A DNA stretch of 64,000 nt from Owenia fusiformis (Eukaryota; Annelida; Polychaeta; Sabellida; Oweniidae): contig CAIIXF020000003.1 of assembly GCA_903813345.2 (NCBI GenBank), positions 13,842,931 to 13,906,930 on the forward strand, given 5' to 3'. Position 1 is the first letter of the stretch; the number at the start of each line of letters is the position of its first letter. The translations under genes and the position numbers were made by a program. Below the pieces are notes generated by a model. It was not told the DNA's origin and did no database searches. It saw only the letters and a program-made list of their open reading frames with translations. Shown piece after piece: positions 5,053 to 57,270 of this stretch.

Positions 5053-5347
5053 TCAAAGCATGGCATTGGCTCGACGGGCCTCGCTATAGCGCTGCTCAAA
5101 TTCATTTCGTGCATTAATGAATCTATAGAGGTCGCTGAAATCGCCATCATTAAAGTCACCTCCTCTTTTTTTCATTGGGAATCCGACGCTCCTACATGGC
5201 CTTCCCCAACTCACGAATCCGCAATCCTGTATTGTCTTTAAAGCTCGACACATTTGGAGTTCTTCGATGGTGCATGAGGCTAAGTTTTGAACACAGCAAT
5301 TTTTGTCTTTCTTTTTTCTCCGAATGGAAACCTCATCTTCTTTTTTA
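5053..5347 (-). CDS. Peptide precursor exon 3 (cysteine domain and tail)
   Basis: The acceptor TATTTTCAG precedes T, which completes an Asn codon with AA from exon 2. The frame then runs 97 codons to TGA at 5055-5053. It includes the RRKKK run, all six clustered cysteines, the segment CGFVSWGRPC, the KKRGG processing-type site and the C-terminal tail ending ANAML. Overlapping ORFs in other frames are shadows. Confidence 0.82.
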
Positions 5348-8300
5348 CTGAAAATATAACACTTAGGTGTGTGTTTTGTGTAAGTTAAATATTTATTATA
5401 TTTCTCGTGGTTATATTTTTTTCAAGAATATACCTGCAGATAAATATCTTATGTATTTAAAAAGCTGATTAATTGTTTCAAAATATTTTGCAGGATATGT
5501 TGCACCTATTACTCTTGGTCATAAATGCAGTGTTTCATCAAATGCACTTACTTTATAAGATAGCGAAGTAGACTTTGGTGGGTCAGTCCTTGCGTACCAG
5601 CGACTTCTTCATAACCAGCGTCAGTGAGTTGTGTATCCGGCAGAGGGTAGAGTTTGAAACAGTCAGCTGAAATGCATTGTAAATATCATTTTGACAATGC
5701 TATATTTAAAAAATAAACATAACTTGAAATATAAAACATAAAATTACACGGTGCCATGTCTAAAAACGACGGCCGTAGCTTGACAAAATCAATATAGATT
5801 ATCTATACAGCGTACTGCTTATCTCTAGTATATTTTATGCTGCATATCTCTCGATTTTGAGAAGCTACGGTCGCCATACGGTTGCCGTAGATTTTATGTG
5901 ACTGAGGCCTTGTTGCTATAATCAATAGAGACTCAAAGAGAGCAGGGGTCCTTGATAAGTTAAAGTGTCTCCAGACTAATGACATAAGATGAATTATCAA
6001 AATTGCGGTTTCATAAAATTCCAAGAGTAAATAATTACACCCAGGAGAATAATCATTGTCTTCCCGTCGACATTATACGGTCCCATGATTAGACTTTGAC
6101 GAATTACATAGTGTGTCGTTTTAGATTAATTATCATCTCACCGCTGTTTCATCTTACACATTAACTATTCTCATGGTAACTCAATGTGAAATTATTTGTT
6201 GCAAATATCATAGCATTTCACCATATCCTTTGTGGTTTATTTAATGGTCTCATCCGCCTCTACACTGCGTTCACTACGCCCAAATATATTCACGTCGCTT
6301 GTTTTGTACGACTTTGATTGATTTAAAATTATTATTTTTATATTAAATTCTCAGATGGGTGAATGATTACGCTTAATAACGGTACAAGGTTCTGATTCGA
6401 ATTGCTAATGACGAAAGACAAAATAAAAACTGTCTCAGAATACGTTCACAGTGGTCATTATTAATATACGAGGAAGAAAACGTACGTAATACATGACAAC
6501 CGCCATTCTTTTTTATTGGAGCTCTATGAAGCTTACTAAATGGACAATGGTTTTTAAGGACTATTAGAATAGACGACCTTAAAGATAAGGTTAACGCTAA
6601 AGTACTCTTAATTACAACAGTAAATAAACGTAACGCATTTTTCCTATTTAATAGATATTTCCTTGGAATTATAAAATGCCATTGGATTTATATTACAGAA
6701 TCATGCATTTGCAATATTCGTTTCGGCAGAGATTTCCCGATATGATATATAGTATAATCGAAAACATCTTCCACGCAAATCAGTCATGGATCGTAGTTTA
6801 TAAGCAATGTTTAATTATTGGAGCACATCATATAACCATTTTATACCAATTGAGAAAATACTTTTTTTGTTCATGTCGATGCTTAAAGATGTAATAAAAT
6901 GACAGTTAGAATATTTTTAGATTCTACTTGGCACACCGAGCGGCTCTTTTGTTATAACTTTAACTATGCTGTCAGTGATATTTCGTCAAAAAACACGACG
7001 TTGTATTAAGGCGAATCTGTCAACCTCTGAAATTTTATTTTCGCAGAGTTTTTGTCATGTGACCATAACAGTTTTGACGTACCGTGCTCGAAGTTAATCA
7101 TGTTGTCTGGCCTAACAACATTAAAAAGATACGTTAGAAAAGCCCGAATCCTCAAACACGTTGCGTCTATGTAGTTCTAGTTCTATAACTTACACGCTTT
7201 TACAAACGATTTAGCTCTAATCGACTCACTCACTTAACTGGCATGGACCACCCTTTGAAAAATTGAAAATAGCATTCATCTGTTAATACAATAAAAAGCA
7301 TTCGACTGGGACACGCTTTGCAAAATTGATGAAATAACCTTATAATTGGCATACATACGGGGGAGTAACTGTTTCAGTGTAATTGAACCGGCCCTTAGAA
7401 TCCGAGTCTCACACAGTTTTACTTTTGTAAACAGACAAGGTAAATATATTATTATTTTATTCATACTTTCGAACATTTTCCATTTATTTTTCTTGGACTA
7501 AGGATGGTGTTTTAAGCATATAAATTGTCAATCGAAGTAATTCATCAAGTGAATACTTGTTAATATCGAATTGAAGTCGTAATTCATTGGTTTCAAGCTA
7601 TTTCAATTAGTTTGTCACATGCGTAACATGCATTTTACACATAGCTAGGCAAGGTGTGTCCGATTCCAGCCAATCCGAACAGAGTGTTCACATAATGACT
7701 TGTCAACTTGACCCTTGCATAATTGAAAATGTGTTATTTTAGTGATTTAGAAAAAATTGCAATGTGTGAAAAGAATTTAAGCCCAAGACTCAATGTAGCT
7801 GCTTCATTCCACTAAGGCGTTGTGCGCAGTCATGCAAAGGTTTGAAAACAACACCTTCATGGTATGATTCGGCAAACAATGCATTGAATCTTGGGCTAAA
7901 ATCCTTTAGTATATAACTAGAACTATGCATTCATTGTCAACATTTTAATTGATCTAGCCTTTCAACCTAAACATACAACATCTTTAGAGTTTTTTAATCT
8001 GTGTCCAGTGCTACAATCAGACCAACAACCATTTTTGCGCGGATCCTCTCGGAAAAGGGAAATTTGTGTATAGAACGTCAAACATATGTTTCCATGAACT
8101 GAGATTTGGGGGATTGATCCAGTTTAGCAGTTATTTCAAATTATTTCATCAATAATGATGCATATATGTCTTTATATTCCATTTTAAATGGCCGTGTTTT
8201 CATAACCAATGAAGTTGGGATTCTGAGGACCGGTTATACTCATTTACACTTGAACAGCTACTCCCCCGTGTTAAACTAAGAGTGAACAACTCGTTTTTCA

Positions 8301-11300
8301 GGTCAGAGTTAAATTCTTATTTACAAAATCGTATTTCGCTGCATGCGAATTGATTCATTTTGTGTCATACAATCGTTTCAATGTGACATAAAATATGTGC
8401 TCTGAAAATGAAATCAGTTTTGCCCCGAAAGCAGACACGTGCTGACTTTATATTCCCGATATCATGATAAAATGGACGTTCTGGTGTTTCATCATCCTCA
8501 AGGGTAATCTAAATCTAGTAAAACGGTTTTATCACATCTTTAACTATTCATATTCTATAGGTTGATTACATGAGTGTTCTACATTATCACTTTACAGAAA
8601 GTTCTAACTCATCAATATGCGTTGTATCCCCTTTTTAGCAATTTCTTTTACCTAACTCATTTCTAGATTCAAATTCCATAATCAACTTATAACAACATTT
8701 ATGAAATTAATATCCGCTTAGACTTAGTCCTACGCATGCCAGCTGAATGTGGCAAATGGTTCTTTCTATATAGTAGAGTTAAAGACAAGTAATGCCTTGG
8801 TCACAAATGCTCCGATCCATCGGCCGGCGCCCGGCCGATTGAGTGTATTGTTCAATATTGTATTCAATTTTGAACAAAATACTCAATCGGCCGGGCGCCG
8901 TAGTGAAAATCGGAGCAAATGTGACCAAGGCATTAGCAAGGTGACGAAAACCTGATAAAGCAGTAAGATAAATTGTCTTTAGAGAAAGCCTTCCTCTAGC
9001 CTCTTTAGGAAAAGAAGAAGATAACATCAGTCTACACCAGTTCCGATTTTTAACTGAAATATTAAGCAGCGCGCTTGCATGGTCGCATAATGTTTCCCTT
9101 TTATATATTTTTAATATTTTTTACAATTTTCAATCTCCTTCTCATTTTTATAAGAATGTTATGGCATGAGATTCTAGTCATTTTAATAGCCTTTTTGTGG
9201 ACTTCATAATTAATATTAAGGTATTTTTCTAGTTTATAAATTTTCTATACATTTCTATACATTCTTGCTTTTAAGTTGTACTCAAACCATTTTACTCGAT
9301 TTAGAGATATTAATGCTATCTTACCGTATGAAAGCCACACTTTACGATGGTGAGCCATCAACAATTCCAAAAAATCATTTTATCATGATATCGCGGCAAA
9401 ACTGATTCATTTTCAGAGCAGACATTTTACGTCACGTCAATTCAAAATGCGATGGCGACCTGTAATCAGGTCATGATGACCTTCTAGATTAAGGGACGCG
9501 TTATACGACCGTTGCACACCGACGTGGTGCGATCTAAACGAACTGCTAATGAGATGGACGTATTGAAGACTGTTTATGAACGAAGTAGCTAATTATTTTA
9601 GACATATTTCCCGACCACAGCCAGATTGATTTCAGCTACATGTGTTTTTTTAAAGAATAGTTATTGACATTTATTAACTATTATATTTCAAGGTTTTGAT
9701 TAATATGCTTGTATCTGTTTGATGAGAACTGTCTTTATCTTGGAAAAACTTTGTTATTCCACAGAAAAATGTCAATTTGACCTTTTCCATATAAATGGAA
9801 ATAGATGGCATCATGGTTTTGGTAGGGCTATGGTAGGGCTAGAATACATGTAAATGTATTGCAAGAGTCGCTTGATTTCTTTATTTAAGAAGCAATTCCA
9901 TTTAGATAAACTTAAAACACCATTGGAATGTAACTATATGATCTTATTGACATGTTGATTGTGATTTCACATTAAAATTGTGATCCTTGTAAGAGTAAAT
10001 TAACTTTTAAGGTTTTTCAGCGTTGTGTCAATGGGGATTTAGTCCGACCTTTTTTAGACAACTAGAAAATCATTAGAATTTGAATAAAGGTGAATAACAG
10101 TGCAAATCAGTTACACAGGGAATTCGAATATGCTATCAAATGGAAGAACATTTTAGTCTTTAATGGTTAACAATGCAGATCTCCTAGAATCTCATTAAAA
10201 ACGAGATTTCAAAGCTAAATGGAAAAAGAACCATTCACAGATTGCCTTCACAACAGTATAGCCTAATAATTTGAAATACATTATTGGCATTATCTACTTT
10301 CACAATCAGTGAACCTTTTGGGGCTTTCCTGGCATATACCAAATAGTGTATGATCCCTATACAGATATTAACAAATATGGGACCTTTATTTCAGACTTAC
10401 CTAGTATTTTTATGTATTTTGAATAAGCTTGTAGTTTGAATTAGAAGAAATTTAAATGATATAGCGAATATGCAGATGCGAGTAGGCAGTTACCAGTTTC
10501 ACCACCAGATGGCTCGTTCGGGTCAGATAGCATGGCGGGTATAGTAAAGTTCCTTTTAATTAAATTAATTAAATTTTAGTGGTTTAATTTTCATATCACC
10601 ATTATGTAAGAAAATGTTATCTGTCCAAAACAAGAAAAGATATTTCACTTTTTGTGATTTTGTAACATGGGGTCTATGGGGAATCTCAACGAACCACACA
10701 TTTCTAAAAAAGAAATTTCAAAGTTGATAAATAATTTTCGAAACCATATTTCTAGATGTACTTTTACATGTAGATTTCAAATATGACATCGCTTTGACTT
10801 AATTTTGAATATTTAATGACTATTATTTCTACTCGCATCTAGTCTATTATGGAGCAGAATAAACATGTTTGCCTTGCGCACCTTAGATATGATAATTATC
10901 GAACTACCGTGCAAATTAAAATAGGATGTAAAATTTATTATAAACACAAAATGACACTGTTTTATAGATAATAAATACTCTTTCACCATTATTGCTCATT
11001 TTGACAGCTGATTCCCCAAATTCATGAAAAATGACTCACGTTGTATTTTTAATTACACCGCGATTTAAACGTGTTCATGTTAAGTTCAATGTTAGAATAG
11101 GTTTGGTTCAACGAGGGGACACGATATTAATTTCGCGATTGCATCATTGCTAACAAATGAAAAGTTGTCCGTTATCTCATTGATCACACCTACTATACGA
11201 TGTCATGTAAAAATAGCAATTCCTATAAGAGGTAAATCCCTTTTTGACAGATCAGATTAAAGAAATCTATAACAATGTATCACCGTACTTCATCACGTTT

Positions 11301-11699
11301 CACCAGAAGTTTGGACTTCATCCAAATTGGAATACAAATAGTTGTACAATAAATAAAATCAGTTAAAAATAAAAATGAAATGAAAGTATGAAAAATAACA
11401 CAAAAATAAAGAGTTTGATTTTTAGTTTTATTCATGGATTAATCTTGATAAACTAAAGCATAAACCGTATACATTTGAAGTAAACATAAATGTTTACATC
11501 TACATGTATTTAATACATGTAGATATGTAGTCATGGAAAGTATATTATAATGTAAAGTTGTTTAAGCATCCGATGAAACATTGTACATATTAATCTAAAA
11601 ACCTACCTGAAATAAAAACTTATTGACTTTTTTTTAAAACCTACCTGGTGTTAGAAGTCCTGACAGCATAATAAATACAAGCACTGAGTGTGTCATCAT
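5053..11699 (-). CDS. Secreted six-cysteine peptide precursor, three exons (family unassigned)
   Basis: The conceptual join 11699-11645, 5666-5552, 5347-5053 gives a 154-residue protein ending in TGA. Residues 1-21 form a signal peptide: the hydrophobic core is LVFIMLSGLL, and A19-D20-C21 would suit cleavage before F22. Residues 22-57 are an acidic/polar spacer. Residues 66-70 are RRKKK. Residues 71-115 hold Cys 74, 75, 82, 90, 99 and 108, spaced CC-x6-C-x7-C-x8-C-x8-C. K116-K117-R118 is a convertase-type site, followed by an acidic tail rich in F, Y and R. This layout is that of a prohormone whose six-cysteine peptide is released between basic sites; that role is inference. All four splice sites are GT/AG and the phases (1, then 2) match exactly. 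I do not recognise the family. Introns of 114 bp... see exon entries: intron 1 is about 6 kb and intron 2 is 204 bp. Confidence 0.75.
5552..5666 (-). CDS. Peptide precursor exon 2 (spacer)
   Basis: The exon is bounded by a TTTCAG acceptor and an AA|GTAAGT donor on the minus strand. It reads DCFKLYPLPDTQLTDAGYEE and continues to RYLI with no stop: 37 full codons, entered in phase 1 and left in phase 2. Intron 2 is only 204 bp (5348-5551). Confidence 0.8.
5667..7640. other. Part of peptide-gene intron 1, no feature seen
   Basis: This is AT-rich unique-looking sequence inside the proposed intron 1. Short ORFs on both strands lack splice context or recognisable motifs. I see nothing to annotate. 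Confidence 0.4.
7776..7900. mobile_element. MITE, 125 bp, ends TTTAAGCCCAAGACTCAATG
   Basis: The left end TTTAAGCCCAAGACTCAATG is answered by CATTGAATCTTGGGCTAAA on the right, 19-20 bp with one or two mismatches. A single end of the same family lies at 783-802. The sequence before it (7660-7775) matches the start of the window at about 130-270. There is no coding capacity. Confidence 0.75.
8374..9440. mobile_element. Diverged ~1.07-kb element with inverted ends
   Basis: The block at 8390-8475 contains CTCTGAAAATGAAATCAGTT and a GATATCATGATAAAATG segment. It recurs as the reverse complement at 9375-9440. The MITE at 8790-8935 sits inside. No transposase is recognisable in the interior. The boundaries are approximate. 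Confidence 0.6.
8790..8935. mobile_element. Near-perfect palindromic MITE, 146 bp
   Basis: The ends TAATGCCTTGGTCACAAATG and its complement extend into long stems of about 65 bp that include a GC-rich CGGCCGGGCGCC-like block. Only about 10 bp remain as a central loop. It would fold into a strong hairpin. ORFs on both strands here are side effects of the symmetry. It lies inside the peptide gene's first intron. Confidence 0.85.
9435..9640 (+). repeat. Fragment of the 13.3-kb element family
   Basis: The sequence from GATGGCGACC through AATCAGGTCATGATGACCTT to CCCGACCACAGCCAGATT matches 13850-14015 with few differences. The ends of the parent element are missing, so this is a truncated copy. 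Confidence 0.75.
10470..10512 (+). repeat. Short repeat, inverted partner at 19960-19996
   Basis: The core TAGGCAGTTACCAGTTTCAC is found in reverse complement 9.5 kb downstream, with a shared CAGATAGCATGG-like extension. It may be the end of a transposon family. Confidence 0.55.
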
Positions 11700-45179: not shown

Positions 45180-47185
45180 CTGACAAGCACGTGCATGCTT
45201 GTTTTAATTAATCGCGCCTAGTTATTTGTTAATTTGATGATAATCATGTTCTTGATTAATCTCAAGGTGACGGCCTATGTAATATTTCCGTGCTGTAAAG
45301 CGCACCGTGTCATTTATTTGCGCTAACGTGGTGTCTGGTGTCTGTAAACGACCGAATTATGACATACTGTTATCTTTCAATCCAGTTGCGAAACTGTTTT
45401 TATTTCAGGGTTATTTAAGGATAGCTGTATATTATGGACCTAGATAATAGAGACATTTTTATTTTAATATTGTCATTAATAATGTATATGCAACTCCAGG
45501 CTTATTTTAATATCATTTGAGACAGGTTAAGCGTCGTGAAAATTGAACCCTATGTCCATGGTCACGTGTATGTCTTTAATTTTACATATGCCTATTGCGC
45601 ATGTGCACAGAGCGTTAGTCATTGTTCTATAAATATTCCTCATAGTAATTTCCAGTATTCTAAACCTTAATTCCTGAACTCTTAATTCATAAAACCCCAA
45701 AATTGTCAATGTATTATTTCTACCGTTCCGAACAATCTCGTTTATTCAATTCTCAAAGATCGACTAAATTGCTTTAGTTTAGTACGAGACTACGTTTCTT
45801 CTCTCCGTAACATTTGACCATTGGACGCGATATGAGCTAGCCATAACTGTCAAACACTTTCCTATAAAAGTATGGAACCTTGTATAATTATCACAAAAAC
45901 ATATCCGCATGGATAATTGATGTTTTTTATTAGCTTTAGGTCTAATATAAAAAGAAAGATAATTCGGAAAACTGAAAATGTGATATTTTATGTCATTGCT
46001 AGATATATAAATTCGAGTGGTGAGTAGTCCTATGTGAATACCATTTTGGGATATCTGGGAATTTTATTGGCAAAAGCCACCCAGGAAACCTGTCATGAGA
46101 CCTTCTATTAATCGCTCCAGTCTATGGAAAATGCCAGCGTCTGCCTCTGTGATCCCAATCATTTTGAAAAATTCTCCAGAAGTATCTGTTTTAAGATTTA
46201 TGACGTGGTCTTGTAGGAATGCAGATAGTGGATGAAGGACGGGTCGTAAATGCCTAGTAGTTTGTTTATACTTAATATGAAAATTTATAAGATTGCTTTG
46301 TTTTATGTTATGGCCAAAACGTACGCTCACGGATGACAGCACATTGCCTTTATTTACTATGGGGCATGATCTTCTTTGAATAATTTACTTGTATTCTAAA
46401 GCTCAAAATAAAGCGCTACAATATTTGTGTTATTAACAGACGTTGCGACAACTTATTGACAATCAGCGGGCCGTGTCAAAATGGAACGATCTGAAACTTT
46501 TTGAGGCAACCCCAGGAGCATCCCCCAGACTGTACGGCACATCGTTGAATAAGCCACAAAAGTAAGTCATAAATGGAAAAACACACACAGTATCGTTGAC
46601 AGTTTCTAGCTCTGCTCATTACCTCATCATTTTTTCATCCCCAATAAAAATGTCGATCAGTCATAACAGATTCTGTAATTGAGTCTTTGGCCTTAGATTC
46701 GGCTGTAATTAATATGACTTTGTGAACTGACATTAACTCCGCCTAGCTTCATCCGTTCAGCTTTGTAGTTAGCGAAGAACACGGTTAACTCCCCTCGTCA
46801 GCCAAAAGAATAAACTAAATGCGAGCGGCTCTCTTAGTATACAAATGAGTTTCTCGACCAATAGGGGCGAGCGGTGCGTATCGATGAAAATTGATACATA
46901 AAGTTTGGGAAGAAGCTCATTGCCACCGGGAAGACCTGTTATCGACTTAACACTCGCTTGGAATATATGTAGCCGAGTTGCAGTTGGTTCTGGACATTGT
47001 TTACACAAGTCGGGACCTGAAAGACTCGCCTGGAGACAGAATTTTCATAAAGAAACATCAACTTAAAAGAGAGTAGTCACACGACTGTATATCTAGACCT
47101 TATTCTGCTTATATCTCAACGTACACGAACAACTCATCTGATTCAGAATCAGAATTTTCTGACTTAAAAAGAATTGGAATACACT
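45180..47185 (+). promoter_or_regulatory. Tbx20 upstream region
   Basis: This is the sequence between the 44-kb repeats and the Tbx20 start codon. Transposon content drops here. Visible motifs are a palindrome around CACGTG at 45183-45203, a CCAAT string at 46858-46862 and GC-richer sequence at 46780-47030. An in-frame stop (TAA at 47165) lies just before the start codon. The transcription start cannot be placed. Promoter activity is inferred from position only. Confidence 0.4.
46064..46342 (-). other. Minus-strand ORF with protein-like 3' half, uncertain
   Basis: The last ~55 codons (…LKTDTSGEFFKMIGITEADA then GIFHRLERLIEGLMTGFLGG) have a plausible amphipathic character and end in TAA near 46066. 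The first half looks random. It could be a small terminal exon or chance. No family was assigned. Confidence 0.2.
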
Positions 47186-47384
47186 ATGTCCGAAATGGAG
47201 GCATTAGTATCTCATTCTCTATCTATGACAAAGCCACAGATGTCAACCAAGGCTTCGGCCTTTTCAATAGCAGCGCTAATCGCACCGGACGATGATGATA
47301 TTGACACAGAAAAGGCGAAGATTCCCGATATAGCCGTAATCAAGACAATAAAAGAACCAGTTGAAACTGTCATGTCACCATTAG
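47186..47384 (+). CDS. Tbx20: Tbx20 coding exon 1
   Basis: [12 protein letters not shown] begins the frame. The upstream TTG codon, which could be misread as a start, is preceded closely by TAA. The exon ends TTAG|GTAAGC after one base of the next codon (phase 1). The antisense ORF over this exon is a shadow. Confidence 0.92.
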
Positions 47385-50300
47385 GTAAGCTACAATTGTA
47401 TTTTGTATTTAGGGGGTCAGTCTTTGTATATACATACATCGTATCTATGTATTTATCGCGATGTATTAACCACATAAAACGCATAAAAACGGTATTTCTA
47501 GTTGTTGATTTTTTGTGCAGTAAAAACAAATTTTATTGCGTAATACAAAAAGAACAGCCTCAACACTAATATTACTGCGAGTAATTAAAATGATGAATTT
47601 GTACAAACTGACGACAACTAAAAGTACATGCACACATAAAAACTAATCTTCATTAATTAAATAATATTAAAACAAGAAGCCCCAATAAATACAAATTTAA
47701 ATAAATACAAACTGAATTAAAAGTCCTCAAATATTATAAAAAGATGATGGATGATTGACGCGGCAATGTATCATTATAAAGATTAAGCAAGATATTAATC
47801 ATTATATATATTAAATATATCAAATATTTAAAATAACTAGTAATAATGATTGGTAGTGTTCCTCAATCTATTTCCCGTGAAGTTATATAGACATCCGTTT
47901 ATATTTAAATAATTGTCAAAGCTAAAAGCCAGTGTAAAGAATAGTAATACATTTGTATTTATATGATAAAGATAATGGTTCCATTGTGGTATTCCCTACC
48001 AAGTTTTCACCATATTGGTCCAATTAAGGGATAACAGACTTTATATGCTCAGCGTTTTAGCGAATCGTTACTAATTACTCTCGGAGAGGATCACAATCCT
48101 CGTGCATTTAACCATGTTATTCTTCCTTAATTGAGTAAGCGAATAATATGAGATTTAAGTCCTAATCATGTACTATTTGGTATCGTTCAAATGTAATTGA
48201 AATGCACCCATGGGATCGGAGACTTTCGCTGCTTGTTCATTTGCAGATATATTCTCGCCAATTTTGACATAATTGTAGCGCTTCTTGCCTGGACATTGTT
48301 AATTAAAAGAAAAAGCAATTGACTAATGAGGGCATTGGCACAATGGCGATATTGTTACACCAGAAACGGGCAAAAGTACAAAAAACAATTATAAAAACAC
48401 AAGACAGGTCTATAAAACATATAAAATAAACCAGAACAGAAAAAAGTATTGTGAGCAATCAAAACATACAAAATAAATTAAAATCCAACTTTTGCGATTA
48501 TTTAACCACATATGGCGCTTGGTCAAAGAGAAGAACATTTCATTGATACGAACAGACAAGGTAAAGAACCGTGACAAAAAGATGACAAAAGATGCTCATT
48601 TGAACGGCCTAGATAAAAGCGACCGCTTAACTTTAAGGTAAAATAATTTACAAATCATCTTGTGATTTACCTGAATTATTTGAATAGAACATGATCTTCT
48701 ATCATCGTGTTCCTTTTACAGCTTTAAAGTTATATCATTCCTAAATCAATTTAAAATGATCTTTCGCATCTTAATGACTCTAAGTATTTTTTTAATTGTT
48801 TGGATATATCATCAGCGGTATGTTCAAATATGTCTCGGTCTACTGTGAATGTAGTGATTTAATTACAGGGTTCGATATAATATAAGTATATATAATAGAG
48901 GTCTGTTAGTGAGGGTAGCTAAATAAGAGTGGGTAAAAATCTGATAACAGGCTAATTATAGGCTAGAGACCGCATCCATTGGGCCGCATACTCGGCACAA
49001 AGACTCGCTTTTTTCTGCGTCACAGCATAGTCAAGCGTTTATAATGGACCCTATAATCAAGGGGATTTTTTAAACGTTATATTTTCTTCATGTGACGTGT
49101 TTGTTTAGTATCTTTCCTCACCGTCAACTTGCCTATATATCTACGGAGAGTAGAATATGATGAATATCTTGAGCTGAGACGCCATGGGGGCATCATGAAG
49201 AAGACAAGTTTAATTTCACTTGTCTGCACATCTGACAAGTTGGTATTTTACATCAAAGCTGTCATATTCTCATTGCTAAAAAACAAACCAAACCAATCAA
49301 ATACATGATTAATATTATATTTAGATCAAATAAATAACAAGGGTACAGCTATGTTGATATTAGAATCAGCGCTTATAACGCAGTAACATTTCGATGACAC
49401 CTTCGCTCTGAATTTTCTTACATCGTTGACAATGAACAGACAAGCAATTAAACTCAATATCGAATATTCGTAATTGATTGGGTAACCCATAGAGACGGTT
49501 GCTGTATTAACCCTTGAAAATTGTGTCCCCTCATCACATGACGATCTACTATGATTAACTAACTCAATCTCACCCCCAGTGTCAAACTCTGCCTATTTCC
49601 ACAGGGTAATCATCTGGCCTTTTACAATCCAATTTTATTCTCGACTCTTCAGAAAATTAACTTTTCATCAAATCATCAAGTTAACGCCATTAGTGGCGTA
49701 TCAGATGAAATCTGATGAGTCAGCAAGTTGCGACGTTTTATTGGCGTGAAATGGCAATTGGAAAATGATGTGAAAATATGTATCAATATCTGATATGATT
49801 CTTTGCGATTAATTGCTATTCGGTTGATATTTTCAGCCTTAATGCATACCAACGCCTTCGAATATTAGCTGCTCCATTGTATTAATCAAGCAATTAGGGC
49901 TGATTGTCAGAGTTTTATGAAAATATGTGAAGCTCGTCAACCAAGTTAACAAATATTTTATTCAAGGTTATATTTCAAAACCAGGCGCCCTTTTCTCTGT
50001 ATAAAAGACCAAATATATTTTGAAAATTGGAATCAAGTGTACACAGTCCATATATGCATGCATTTCGATTAATTTAATTATATTTGAATCTACAATTGGC
50101 ATAGATAAAACAAAACACAATAATTAATGGGTAGAAGTATCATATAATTTTTGCAATTTTTAAAGCAAAAATACCATCACATAATTTAGAATTGCTCGCC
50201 TTACACATTGGAAACTTCTCTTAAAAGCCTTTGAGCTATTTCAAAAAATGGGAGAACGCTTGATTTGATTTAATGCTTAATCATGCCAGGTCATTGTCTA

Positions 50301-53300: not shown

Positions 53301-55387
53301 TCGATAATCCTGAGGCAAAGTTTGGAATGAACGCGGCACCAGATCGCTCACTAATCACCCTCGCCGGATCGTTTAGTTTAATTGGCTACAAAATTATGTT
53401 AACCAGTCCAAATATTTCTCATAGACCACTTACATCTACAAACACTAACATACGATCTGTTTATATGTTTATGTTAAGGGCCTGCTGCTTAAGACAGCCC
53501 GATCATTAAGCATAATGATGAGTTGCAAATTAAGAGAGATTTGACTGCATCTCAGACAGGATTCTATAGTTGGTATTATCTCTCACGTAAGCTTAATAAA
53601 TCAATAATAGATTTGACAATTTACTTTAAACATCACAAGGGATATTCTTACCCAATACATACTACTTAATAACCAATCACCCAATCAGTCGAGGCTTATT
53701 GGAGAACTTATTGATAATATAAAGTGACCATTACAAATTTCAATAAGAACTTCTCAAATTCTGGTACATCTTATCAATAGTAACAGATATGTTGGTCCAC
53801 CCGAGATCTAAATTTTCCATTTACCCACATGGCCCTGATCAAGTATAAATGACTATTTGCTATAAGTTGTATTGGCGATATTCAAAAACACATCTCTTCC
53901 TTCCTTTCTACAAATTTATCAGGACATGATCCAAAACCACAAATAGCAACCTTGATTGCATTTCAAGATCACAAGAACGTAAAAAACACATTGAAGAATA
54001 GGCCACATACATACTTACAATAAAATACACAAGTGCACATGGACGATGTTACAATTACATCTCGGAATTATCCCGCGGGTACAATATCAAACAAAACATA
54101 CATCCAAGAACATAGTGTCATTTGTATGCTGTTGTGGCCAAGACTTTGAAACTGCGTTTGATCTTATTCAAATAGCACAGTTGTGACTATAATAGAGTCA
54201 ACGATCCTTCAAATATGAGAGCTGTGAACAGAAAAATATGCTATGAGTTAAACCATGTATGGTTGATAATTTGATCAAAGAATAGGAAAGCGATAATTTT
54301 TAATTTTCTTCAAATTAGCGTCAACATCTGGTATTGTGCAGAAATGAGTGTTAGTACTGGTTTATGTTTTACCAATAATCATTTGGGACTTCTGAACACT
54401 AAAATGTCTGTATGTATAAAACAGGGACAAAACACACTAAGTTTACATAAACTGTTAACATTTTTCCGAATAACAGATATGCCAACTAACTCCACTGTTT
54501 TACTAGCATTTGCTGTGTTTTCGCAGATTTGGCATCGCTGTTCTATTCCCCTTGGCCTACGATCAATTTAAGATTTTGGCATTGGGTTGAGATTAAGGGA
54601 CTGTAAATTAAACAGTACCATTTTTCATGTATTCAACTTTAATCAATGATAATGAACTTGAGTTTGTTAATCATTTGATTTCAAAGCTTTGGTGATGTTT
54701 AAATTAAGTAAAGTCGCTTTATTGTGGATCGGGGTGGTAACGTTGATTTATAGGTGTTGAAATATAAGAATCTTGAGAGTCTAATTACAAAGCCATGGGA
54801 AAGTTGCTGCTTCCCAAACTATGCTAACATTATCCCAAGCCTGCATGGGTGATTAGTAGCATAATTAATCGTTAATTATGTCCTTGCCGCCTATACGGTG
54901 GGCAGTTTTCAACTCAAACTTGATTATATTTCACCTTAATGTTGACAGGATTTCCAAGTAAACAGAACGCGCAACCTGAAGTATCCCATGTTTTCTGTAA
55001 ATGTACCACGAAAACGCATTTTCCATATGATGTATATAATGTTATAATAAATGCACATCCAATACCCATACAAAGCATATAAATAAAACAAAGATAAACA
55101 AAACAATTATTTTAATGTATTTGTACAGCAAAAACTGAAATTGATTATATTTTACTTATTATTTCAGAGAAACTGGTTGAGTCAGCTACAAGCGCATATG
55201 ACAGCAAATTCGCAAAATCCGAAAGTGCATTTAAAGCCACAAAGAATGAACCCATTCACAATCTTGCAACTAATGCCTTAAAGGGAAGCAAAGAGCTGGC
55301 TAATGTTCAATGTAGACTCGAGACAAAAGACTTGTGGGATAAGTTCCACGAACTAGGGACAGAGATGATAATCACGAAGTCTGGAAG
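47186..55387 (+). CDS. T-box transcription factor Tbx20 (H15/midline class), 5' part
   Basis: The join 47186-47384 plus 55168-55387 gives 139 full codons, with the gene continuing past the window. Residues 20-33 ([14 protein letters not shown]) match the conserved N-terminal motif of Tbx20/H15, with an eh1-like Groucho-binding core F26-S-I-A-A-L-I32. An acidic DDDD run follows. From about residue 113 the T-box begins: [20 protein letters not shown], then MIITKSGR. Tbx20 proteins are nuclear T-box regulators of heart, ventral ectoderm and neural development, depending on the animal. The start is the first ATG after an in-frame stop. The remaining T-box exons were looked for downstream to 64000 and not found, so intron 2 is longer than 8.6 kb. 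Confidence 0.93.
47385..52493 (+). other. Tbx20 intron 1, first part
   Basis: This is AT-rich sequence with few recognisable repeats compared with the rest of the window. It holds the longest ORF of the window (133 codons, minus strand, 50745-51146), which is rich in S, T, Y, I and K without any motif. Regulatory elements would be expected in such an intron, but none can be identified from one sequence. Confidence 0.5.
52494..53108. repeat. Perfect 165-bp direct repeat flanking 285 bp
   Basis: 52494-52658 and 52944-53108 are identical base for base (TTTATGAAGCTGTAGTGTTC to GGGCTAACAACC). The spacer contains a G-rich stretch directly after the first copy. Two explanations fit: a recent 450-bp tandem duplication with a truncated second unit, or a tiny LTR-type element. 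Clean TG...CA ends and a polypurine tract are absent, which favours duplication. Confidence 0.9.
53109..55167 (+). other. Tbx20 intron 1, last part
   Basis: No exon or bounded repeat was seen. Homeodomain-type TAATTA sites are clustered near 54858-54877 (ATAATTAATCGTTAATTA). Their function is unknown. Confidence 0.4.
55168..55387 (+). CDS. Tbx20: Tbx20 coding exon 2 (start of T-box)
   Basis: The acceptor ATTATTTCAG precedes AG, which completes a Glu codon with the G of exon 1. A 45-residue linker leads to [20 protein letters not shown] and ITKSGR. The donor GGAAG|GTATGG (phase 2) falls at the conserved T-box intron site before the RMFP motif expected in the next exon. Confidence 0.94.
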
Positions 55388-57270
55388 GTATGGGAAATTC
55401 AAAATGTATATTTATCCAGTACCATTCATCATTCTACTAATCAGATTTTCAATATGGCGATTTAACAACTTTTTATTTATAAAAGTAAAGAAAACAATAC
55501 AAAGTGGGCCAAAAACGTCAATCTTCGTAATTTTAATGGTCCACTCGGTCATGAATACTGTATGAGGTGTGTGCGTTCGATCTTGCATTTCTAGGCAAAA
55601 ATACATGGTGGCAGATACTCGGGGATCTATTTTTACTGATATTGCACGTCGGTTAACCAAAGCATGTGTTTTATCATGAGTAGGCTATCATGACGACTTT
55701 CCAATAATCCAAGTTGGGTGAAAAGTTCAGATAATTTTGCAAGTGTGGTTTTACAATGGGTAATGGCTTTGGCTTTATGTGCCGCGCTCAATTGAATTTG
55801 ACAGAAATACAATTTGATTCGCAATTTGCACGGTGGGTGCTTTAAAAAACATAATAACACGTTTCATAAGGTGCCACGAAGTTGCAGAACAAATATTTTG
55901 AAAATATGAACTGAAACTTGACTCTAGGCTGTCAGGTCTAAATAACATAATTAAAACATGTTTAACATTGTTAATATTAAACATATTTTGTTATTATTTG
56001 TTGACATATGTCTAAAAATCTAAAAATAGTATATCTTGCGTCGTGCATTACCTATTAAACTGAACTGAACAATAATAAGTTATATACATTTCTTACATGT
56101 TTTTATTGTATTAAAGTATGATCATGAATACACCTACCTCTTGATAACTTTTAATTGAATATATTTATAAAAAGTACTGTGCATTGTGATTGAAATGGGA
56201 TTATATGGGCTATTTTAATTATAATTAAACGGGATTGCATAAGTAAATGAAAACGGACGAGTAGAGATACTAAATGATGTGTAAAAACAACATTCTGTAA
56301 AACTGACCTTTAGTACAAGTCGAAAGTTCAAGTTCAAGTTCTACTTCAATGATGAGGTATGAAAGGCTAAAAAACATATTTGTAAACTTTTTGAAAATGA
56401 TAACAATTAAAAAAATAACAAAAAAGTATTAAAGTACCAAATTATGAAAAGAGCTATTTTAAACGTTCAGAGATCCCGATTTGCAGACTCGTTTATTTCG
56501 ATTAATAATATGCTACCTTGGAATACAATTATAGTTATTTATGTATTAAATACATTAATGTAAACAATCGGAAAAAGACAAAGTGCAATAAAAAATACAC
56601 TTTTAATTATATTAATATTAAGATCGGAACAATACTTGTAACAAGTGCATGTACCAATTATTTTGTACTAGAGAATGTAAATAACGCATTTTGGTGCCAA
56701 ATTTGGTCATTAGCTGAACTTTTAACCTTTATAGTTGTATTTAAAGCCTGACTTTGAATCAAATGGTGTGAAGAACGGAAACATTATGTTTAATTTGTTT
56801 TTTAAGTCGAATTAAGTGATTGTTCCTCTTTTATTTTATGGACGTGTAGGTGTAGCAACAGAAAAGACCAGCAATGATTCACACAAAAACTGAAAACACA
56901 ACTATAATACAATCGTAAGGTAGCGAATAAACGTTTAGAGCCATGATTATAATTAGAGTCGATAATGAATATTTTAGGTATCGCAAAGGTAATGCGATAT
57001 CATCTAATTACATTTGTTTGTAGGTACTCGAATGGTTGTGAAGTTTATGTGCCTTTGATTTACTTGAACTTTTTTGACATTTTCAATTGGTAAAGTCAGC
57101 CGAGATCATGATTCAGATTCGGTTTTAGAGTACGATTCTGAAAACGTAAGCGAAGAAAAGTCTAATAAACGAAGCTAATAAAGCAAATTAAAATGCCGTT
57201 AAAGATGGTTTTACTTTTTACAGGGTCGGACAATAACAAAACCGTAATTGAAATAAAGCTTGCATATGCG
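55388..57270 (+). other. Tbx20 intron 2, first part
   Basis: AT-rich and without a recognisable T-box exon. Short ORFs have no motifs. Confidence 0.45.

What the first reader, a model, noticed from the sequence alone, without database searches (positions are those of the whole stretch)
5053..11699. Unrecognised secreted prohormone-like gene with a six-cysteine peptide
Three small exons with GT/AG sites and matching phases join into a 154-residue protein with a signal peptide, an RRKKK run, a CC-x6-C-x7-C-x8-C-x8-C segment, a KKR site and an acidic tail. The predicted product between the basic sites is about 45 residues, with six cysteines (three possible disulfides). I cannot match this spacing to insulin, CHH/ITP, eclosion hormone, elevenin or trissin. 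It may be a taxon-restricted neuropeptide or signalling peptide. The gene is easily missed because exon 1 is 55 bases long and lies 6 kb away. The sequence and phases are observed; secretion and processing are inference.
Basis: partly seen in the sequence, partly recalled or inferred. Interest (0 to 1): 0.82.

Follow-up and report, generated by a model that had tools for sequence, protein, structure and literature searches.

The report
Worm hormone-like six-cysteine peptide family
A three-exon gene that appears to make a small secreted peptide with three possible disulfide bridges is very probably real, because two more genes of the same build lie elsewhere in the same worm-like animal's genome; they look like a hormone family that the protein-family library searched does not recognise.

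Summary
Exons at 11699-11645, 5666-5552 and 5347-5053 (minus strand, GT/AG, phases 1 and 2) join into 154 residues: signal peptide, pro-region, RRKKK, a 45-residue peptide CC-x6-C-x7-C-x8-C-x8-C, KKR, and a mildly acidic tail. New: protein searches of the window's own 498 Mb genome find two dispersed relatives whose models have the same plan (signal exon, phase 1; pro-region exon, phase 2; exon with a basic site, then D-x(2-3)-CC-x4/6-C-x7-C-x8-C-x8/10-C). Likeness lies in the mature peptide; signals and most pro-region comparisons are near random. A published test links that to hormones and the reverse to venom toxins. No convincing Pfam or PDB match. This genome's insulin-type genes have other spacing. 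Four of five published doppelganger-related families have one or two disulfides (not stated for the fifth). The plan of signal, pro and mature exons with phases 1/2 is, however, that printed for most conotoxin superfamilies studied. The Hox cluster resembles that printed for the annelid Owenia fusiformis (species inferred). Best reading: a family of peptide prohormones, one three-disulfide hormone each. Transcripts, secretion, bridges, receptor and presence in other species are untested.

The parts
11645..11699 (-). Coding exon 1: signal peptide MMTHSVLVFIMLSGLLTPA..., phase-1 donor CAG|GTAGGT
   Evidence: first for hydrophobicity of 7 listed candidates in 15 kb upstream
5552..5666 (-). Coding exon 2: end of signal and pro-region (DCFKLYPLPDTQLTDAGYEEVAGTQGLTHQSLLRYLI), phase-2 donor AAA|GTAAGT
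   Evidence: same phases as exon 2 in the models of both paralogs
5053..5347 (-). Coding exon 3: end of pro-region, basic site, six-cysteine peptide, second basic site, tail and stop
   Evidence: cysteine part matched by two paralogous exons with the same phase-2 acceptor
5308..5322 (-). RRKKK, predicted convertase site before the mature peptide (residues 66-70)
   Evidence: paralogs have RKR and SKR in the same place
5173..5307 (-). Predicted mature peptide, 45 residues, CC-x6-C-x7-C-x8-C-x8-C (residues 71-115)
5164..5172 (-). KKR, predicted second cleavage site (residues 116-118); absent from both paralogs, whose frames stop at the last Cys or one residue after it
5056..5163 (-). C-terminal tail of 36 residues, found only in the window gene of the three

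Best explanation
The gene is one of a family of at least three dispersed genes in this spiralian, probably annelid, genome. Each encodes a prepropeptide hormone. Exon 1 directs the chain into the secretory pathway. Exon 2 and the start of exon 3 form a spacer that is cut off at a basic site (RRKKK, RKR or SKR) by a prohormone convertase in the regulated pathway. This releases one peptide of 36 to 45 residues starting with Asp and folded by three disulfides around a central helix (IEELQMCRALKTIQD in the window gene); the window gene also releases a tail after KKR. The peptide then acts on a surface receptor as a hormone or neuropeptide. Shown: gene structure in the sequence, family, conserved mature region, cysteine conservation, phase of the last intron. 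Inferred: the distant first exons' joining, transcription, secretion, cleavage, disulfides (six Cys, pairing unknown), helix (low-confidence model) and receptor action.
For: Paralog Cys exons found by tblastn and in reverse: C11:11156626 (E 4.1e-4 from the window protein; 2.8e-5 in reverse) and C11:34557775 (E 0.0101; 0.0039 in reverse); a consensus query returned these three places and no others (3 matches at E<=10). Both have an acceptor at the same phase 2 and a basic site just before D-x(2-3)-CC. Models: C11 exons 11181107-11181059, 11160980-11160857, 11156764-11156626 (103 aa); 34549363-34549447, 34556354-34556495, 34557765-34557954 (138 aa); phases 1 and 2, first introns 20,078 and 6,906 bases. 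Signal exons with hydropathy >=1.9 and donor >=5: 2 donors in 49,505 bases read on both strands (five paralog loci), the two used. Mature regions score z 11.0, 8.2 and 8.8 over shuffles (0 of 1000 reach each), signals z 0.1, 0.5, 0.7, pro-regions z 1.2, 3.1, -0.9. Shuffling only non-Cys residues: 0 of 3000 reach each observed score (closest 72 against 74); third codon positions least alike in all three pairs; likeness only in the coding frame. PMC10501145 section 3.6 says hormone precursors conserve the mature region, toxin precursors signal and spacer.
Against: No transcript, peptide or receptor evidence. No relative outside this genome could be sought. Middle exons of both paralogs were not above shuffles when sought by likeness to the window's exon 2 (27 against shuffle maxima 22-30; 24 against 26-32); that of the 103-aa gene is the top of 11 overlapping candidates and rests on splice signals, and the middle exon of the 138-aa gene, used as a query, found only itself. 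Both paralogs' signal exons were found only after one widening of the search (30, 52), and the thresholds were set after seeing the first of them. A seventh Cys at residue 21 would be unpaired if cleavage falls after Ala19. Three paralogs of one genome are a thin basis for the hormone-versus-toxin rate test. AlphaFold models are weak (mean pLDDT 57.0 and 66.2).
Confidence: 0.62

Rival explanations
1. A secreted defence, mucus or venom-type disulfide peptide family: same processing, but the product acts on other organisms or on ion channels rather than as an internal hormone.
For: Signal, pro and mature exons with phase 1 and phase 2 introns are the plan printed for most of the three-exon conotoxin superfamilies studied in PMC3862624 (passages), and phases 1 and 2 are also printed for a contryphan gene in PMC10501145. 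Dibasic release and six Cys fit both classes.
Against: Mature region conserved and signal/spacer hardly, the reverse of the toxin pattern. Three dispersed copies found (C3, and two on C11 about 23 Mb apart), no tandem array seen. Net charge +1, -1 and +2, not strongly cationic as many antimicrobial peptides are (recalled). No Pfam toxin or antimicrobial family listed at E up to 10.
Confidence: 0.22
2. A very divergent branch of a known cysteine hormone family (insulin/relaxin, CHH/ITP, eclosion hormone or one of the doppelganger-related families) that has lost recognisable spacing.
For: The CC opening and a KR-type site in the last exon recall an insulin A chain.
Against: Insulin-type A chains here are CC-x3-C-x8-C, against CC-x4/6-C-x7-C-x8-C-x8/10-C; a candidate phase-1 acceptor lies 35-40 codons before their CC, though acceptor-like sites at other phases were listed too. 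No B chain seen. Relaxin-type precursors, O. fusiformis included, have a phase-1 C-chain intron (PMC11863921 passages); here it is phase 2. Four of five doppelganger-related families have one or two disulfides, the number for the fifth not being given in what I read. No Pfam hit.
Confidence: 0.1
3. A secreted structural or regulatory cysteine peptide that is not a signal (for example a protease inhibitor or matrix peptide), with the basic run not cleaved.
For: No expression or processing data; many small secreted Cys proteins are not hormones (recalled).
Against: Basic site immediately before D-x(2-3)-CC in all three, although the spacer around it is hardly conserved. Frames of both paralogs end at the last Cys or one residue on. 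No inhibitor family listed by Pfam.
Confidence: 0.05
4. Not a gene: chance open frames joined by eye.
For: Short exons and a 6 kb first intron leave room for selection by eye; transcripts untested.
Against: Two further loci with the same cysteine exon and phase; 0 of 60 resampled windows hold the pattern; coding-frame-only conservation.
Confidence: 0.01

Closest known systems
Insulin/relaxin superfamily
   Same: Secreted precursor, one basic site before a CC-containing peptide, separate last exon
   Different: No B chain seen, CC-x4/6-C-x7-C-x8-C-x8/10-C instead of CC-x3-C-x8-C, phase 2 instead of the phase-1 intron printed for relaxin-type genes
Conotoxin precursors of the three-exon superfamilies (PMC3862624, passages read)
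   Same: Signal, pro-region and mature exons; intron 1 phase 1 and intron 2 phase 2 in most; one mature peptide; Cys order CC-C-C-C-C is recalled as a conotoxin framework
   Different: Spacing, no Pfam conotoxin match, not a Conus genome, conservation in the mature part instead of the signal, three dispersed copies found; two of three second introns are under the printed 3 kb (204 and 1,269 bases). The A superfamily, which I recall as the home of the CC-C-C-C-C framework, has two exons in that paper
Doppelganger-related peptides (DREPs) of molluscs and annelids (PMC10501145, sections 3.1, 3.2, 3.6, 3.7 read)
   Same: Unannotated spiralian secreted peptides with basic processing sites and conserved mature region
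   Different: Four of the five families are given with one or two disulfides, the number for the fifth (Hairpin) not stated there; none is described as six-Cys CC-C-C-C-C in those sections. Sequences in their supplements not seen
[quoted passage not shown] PMC3890597 passages)
   Same: Annelid orphan precursors with Cys
   Different: Their sequences are in a supplement that could not be opened here, so kinship is untested

Membership tests
Peptide prohormone / neuropeptide precursor (functional class) | N-terminal signal peptide | tested here: met
   Hydrophobic N-terminal exons in the models of all three genes by Kyte-Doolittle scan; no SignalP run
Peptide prohormone / neuropeptide precursor (functional class) | Basic cleavage site flanking the peptide | tested here: met
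   RRKKK/KKR, RKR, SKR; present as sequence, cleavage not shown
Peptide prohormone / neuropeptide precursor (functional class) | Mature region conserved above signal and spacer | tested here: met
   z 8.2-11.0 against -0.9 to 3.1, three paralogs
Peptide prohormone / neuropeptide precursor (functional class) | Expression in neuroendocrine cells and a receptor | not testable with these tools
   No RNA or assay data
Insulin/relaxin superfamily | A chain CC-x3-C-x8-C plus B chain | tested here: not met
   Cys spacing in all three genes; no Pfam insulin hit
Insulin/relaxin superfamily | Phase-1 intron in the C-peptide region | tested here: not met
   Phase 2 here; phase 1 printed for relaxin-type genes; candidate phase-1 acceptors, among others, in this genome's insulin-type genes
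Conotoxin superfamilies | Three exons = signal, pro, mature; phases 1 and 2 | tested here: met
   against PMC3862624 passages; a plan that other secreted peptides may share by chance
Conotoxin superfamilies | Pfam conotoxin match | tested here: not met
   No Pfam family at E<=10 for the window protein, its mature peptide or the 103-aa paralog; the 138-aa paralog had two weak hits under cut-off, COX16 and PH_TFIIH
Conotoxin superfamilies | Signal sequence shared with a named superfamily | not tested
   No conotoxin sequence was fetched or compared
CHH/ITP and eclosion hormone | Family profile match | tested here: not met
   No Pfam hit; spacings compared from recall only
Doppelganger-related peptides (five families) | Number of disulfides and layout as printed | tested here: inconclusive
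   Six Cys here; one or two disulfides in four families, not stated for Hairpin in the section read; sequences not seen

The most novel reading that the evidence does not exclude
This is a spiralian hormone family, unmatched in the libraries searched, whose gene plan (signal/pro/mature exons, phases 1 and 2, CC-C-C-C-C peptide) is the ancestral form from which a conotoxin superfamily was recruited, so that worms carry the endogenous counterpart of a venom scaffold.
Probability: 0.07. Interest if true: 0.85.

Novelty: new variant of a known kind. Interest (0 to 1): 0.52.

Why it matters
If the peptides are made, this genome has a hormone family of at least three genes with a cysteine scaffold that matches no family in the libraries searched. 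It could be traced across spiralians, its receptors sought, and its relation to venom peptides with the same gene plan tested. It also shows how such genes can escape annotation: in the models the first coding exons of 55, 49 and 85 bases lie about 6, 20 and 7 kb from the rest.

Tried and rejected
Pfam on the window protein and mature peptide: nothing at E<=10; the 138-aa paralog had two weak hits under cut-off (COX16, PH_TFIIH), taken as chance. PDB by sequence: weak matches only, taken as chance (best E 1.6, best an envelope glycoprotein, E 0.052). Two AlphaFold jobs gave one long central helix (and a 4-residue one in the first) with mean pLDDT 57.0 and 66.2; Foldseek on the better model gave 1 match with E<=10, a NUDIX domain at E 6.8, taken as chance. 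Weaker tblastn places L011, L012 and L016 lack the pattern and were rejected. A query with the middle exon of the 138-aa gene found only itself. Insulin kinship rejected. A COX1 search to help name the species found nothing; the 18S search failed. Ten paper searches listed no paper that I recognised as describing this family; of 11 papers opened I saw passages, and full sections only of PMC10501145 (3.1, 3.2, 3.6, 3.7) and PMC3890597 (section 11). Supplements could not be opened, and 25 papers held 'Owenia fusiformis' with 'neuropeptide' (20 listed, passages of two read: PMC10880339, PMC11863921), so absence from print is not shown. NCBIfam, PHROGs and PADLOC were not searched, being libraries for prokaryotes and their viruses.
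Full report
What is there. On the minus strand of the window, exons 11699-11645, 5666-5552 and 5347-5053 join through GT/AG introns of 5,978 and 204 bases, phases 1 and 2, into a 154-residue protein. It reads signal peptide, pro-region, RRKKK, 45 residues with CC-x6-C-x7-C-x8-C-x8-C, KKR and a 36-residue tail that is only mildly acidic. A seventh cysteine, at residue 21, lies at the end of the signal region. The six-Cys pattern, even loosely defined, occurs once in six frames of the window and in 0 of 60 Markov-resampled windows. The first exon ranks highest for hydrophobicity among 7 listed ATG-to-donor candidates in 15 kb (donor score 3 or more).

The family. tblastn of the window protein (typed with one residue too many) against the window's own genome (498,259,871 bases, 525 contigs; the window is C3:13842931-13906930) gave five matches: three are this gene's exons and two are elsewhere, C11:11156626-11156745 (E 4.1e-4) and C11:34557775-34557939 (E 0.0101). 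Using each paralog as query returns the others (E 2.8e-5 and 0.0178; 0.0039 and 0.045); the remaining places, L011, L012 and L016, do not hold the pattern. A consensus query returned three places, all members. This search scores only the best candidates, so three is a lower bound.

Gene plan of the relatives. Both paralogous cysteine exons start at the same phase (2) after a TTTCAG acceptor and have a basic site directly before D-x(2-3)-CC; their frames stop at the last Cys or one residue after it. Upstream I modelled an exon with phase-1 acceptor and phase-2 donor in each, and then a signal exon with a phase-1 donor. The 138-residue gene has exons at C11:34549363-34549447, 34556354-34556495 and 34557765-34557954; the 103-residue gene has them at C11:11181107-11181059, 11160980-11160857 and 11156764-11156626.

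How firm the upstream exons are. Each signal exon needed one widening of the search: the first 6.4 kb upstream gave no candidate for the 138-residue gene and the first 11.9 kb gave only weak ones for the 103-residue gene. After widening, the chosen exon has the best donor of the 8 rows listed for the former and ranks first on both scores of 7 rows for the latter. Under thresholds set after seeing the first of them, only two such donors exist in the five paralog loci, 49,505 bases read on both strands, and they are these two. The middle exons were not above shuffles in likeness to the window's exon 2 (27 against shuffle maxima 22-30; 24 against 26-32). That of the 103-residue gene rests on splice signals (top of 11 overlapping candidates), and that of the 138-residue gene, used as a query, found only itself.

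Selection. The three mature regions share 18 of 36, 14 of 39 and 12 of 36 aligned residues and score 8.2 to 11.0 standard deviations over shuffles; signals score 0.1 to 0.7 and pro-regions 1.2, 3.1 and -0.9 (region boundaries set by me). Shuffling only the non-Cys residues never reaches the observed scores (0 of 3000 for each of three pairs; closest 72 against 74); the likeness vanishes in the other two frames; the third codon position is the least conserved in all three pairs. That is what a conserved peptide gives, not chance frames. PMC10501145 (section 3.6, read) states that signalling precursors conserve the mature peptide over signal and spacer, and toxin precursors do the opposite; by that test the family behaves like hormones. 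I could apply the test only to three paralogs of one genome.

What it is not. No Pfam family matched the window protein, its mature peptide or the 103-residue paralog at E<=10; the 138-residue paralog had two weak hits under cut-off. No PDB sequence is a convincing match. The genome's insulin-type genes lie at C11:8.98 Mb, C6:28.66 Mb and C11:28.32 Mb, with CC-x3-C-x8-C; a candidate phase-1 acceptor lies 35 to 40 codons before the CC in each, among acceptor-like sites of other phases. A phase-1 C-chain intron is printed for relaxin-type genes including that of O. fusiformis (PMC11863921, passages). The present family differs in spacing, shows no B chain and uses phase 2. Of the five doppelganger-related families four are given with one or two disulfides; for Hairpin the section read gives no number (PMC10501145 sections 3.1, 3.2, 3.7). 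Structure prediction shows a central helix with low confidence and no useful fold match.

What it works like. The most likely mechanism is an ordinary regulated-secretion prohormone: signal removal, disulfide formation, convertase cleavage at the basic site, release of one three-disulfide peptide, and action on a receptor. Gene structure in the sequence, family and constraint are shown; everything from transcription on is inferred.

The unexpected parallel. [quoted passage not shown] the A superfamily has two exons. A contryphan gene of Conus ventricosus is also printed with phases 1 and 2 (PMC10501145 passages). The present family has the same three-way division and the same phases; two of its three second introns are shorter than 3 kb (204, 4,092 and 1,269 bases). 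The CC-C-C-C-C cysteine order is one I recall from the A superfamily, which has the other gene plan, so the two resemblances do not point to one superfamily. Two phases agree by chance about one time in nine, and more often if phase 1 is common after signal exons (recalled), so this is a lead and not a homology.

Which animal. A homeodomain query finds a cluster on C1:17.97-18.47 Mb with Lox4-, Lox2- and Lox5-like homeodomains and a Post1-like one at C1:56.85 Mb (gene names recalled). PMC9977687 (passages) prints for O. fusiformis a compact ordered cluster on chromosome 1 except Post1 farther along that chromosome, and an assembly of 505.8 Mb in 12 chromosome-scale scaffolds. The genome held here is 498.3 Mb in 525 contigs, so it is not the same file; the species is probably O. 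fusiformis or a near relative, inferred. No mitochondrial COX1 was found to settle it.

Limits. No RNA, no proteomics and no other animal genome could be consulted; supplements of the neuropeptide papers could not be opened. The family may be annotated or described there.

Noticed in passing
window 55116-55565 (+), perhaps also 47171-47566 (+): T-box exon (Pfam T-box, E 7.8e-8); recalled motifs resemble Tbx20, with a possible N-terminal exon at 47.2 kb that has no Pfam match at E<=0.01.
   Followed up: partly
L028 (G000 C1:17970454-17970648 and 17970805-17970999): Two Post2-like homeodomains 351 bases apart in the same frame, 131 of 195 bases identical: tandem or alternative homeobox exons in a Hox gene (names recalled).
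   Followed up: partly
L035-L038 (G000 C11:8.976 Mb, C6:28.663 Mb, C11:28.321 Mb): Three insulin/relaxin-type loci; two have CECC in the A chain.
   Followed up: partly
window 5056-5163 (-): Of the three genes the window gene alone carries a 36-residue tail after KKR, which could be released as a second peptide.
   Followed up: no
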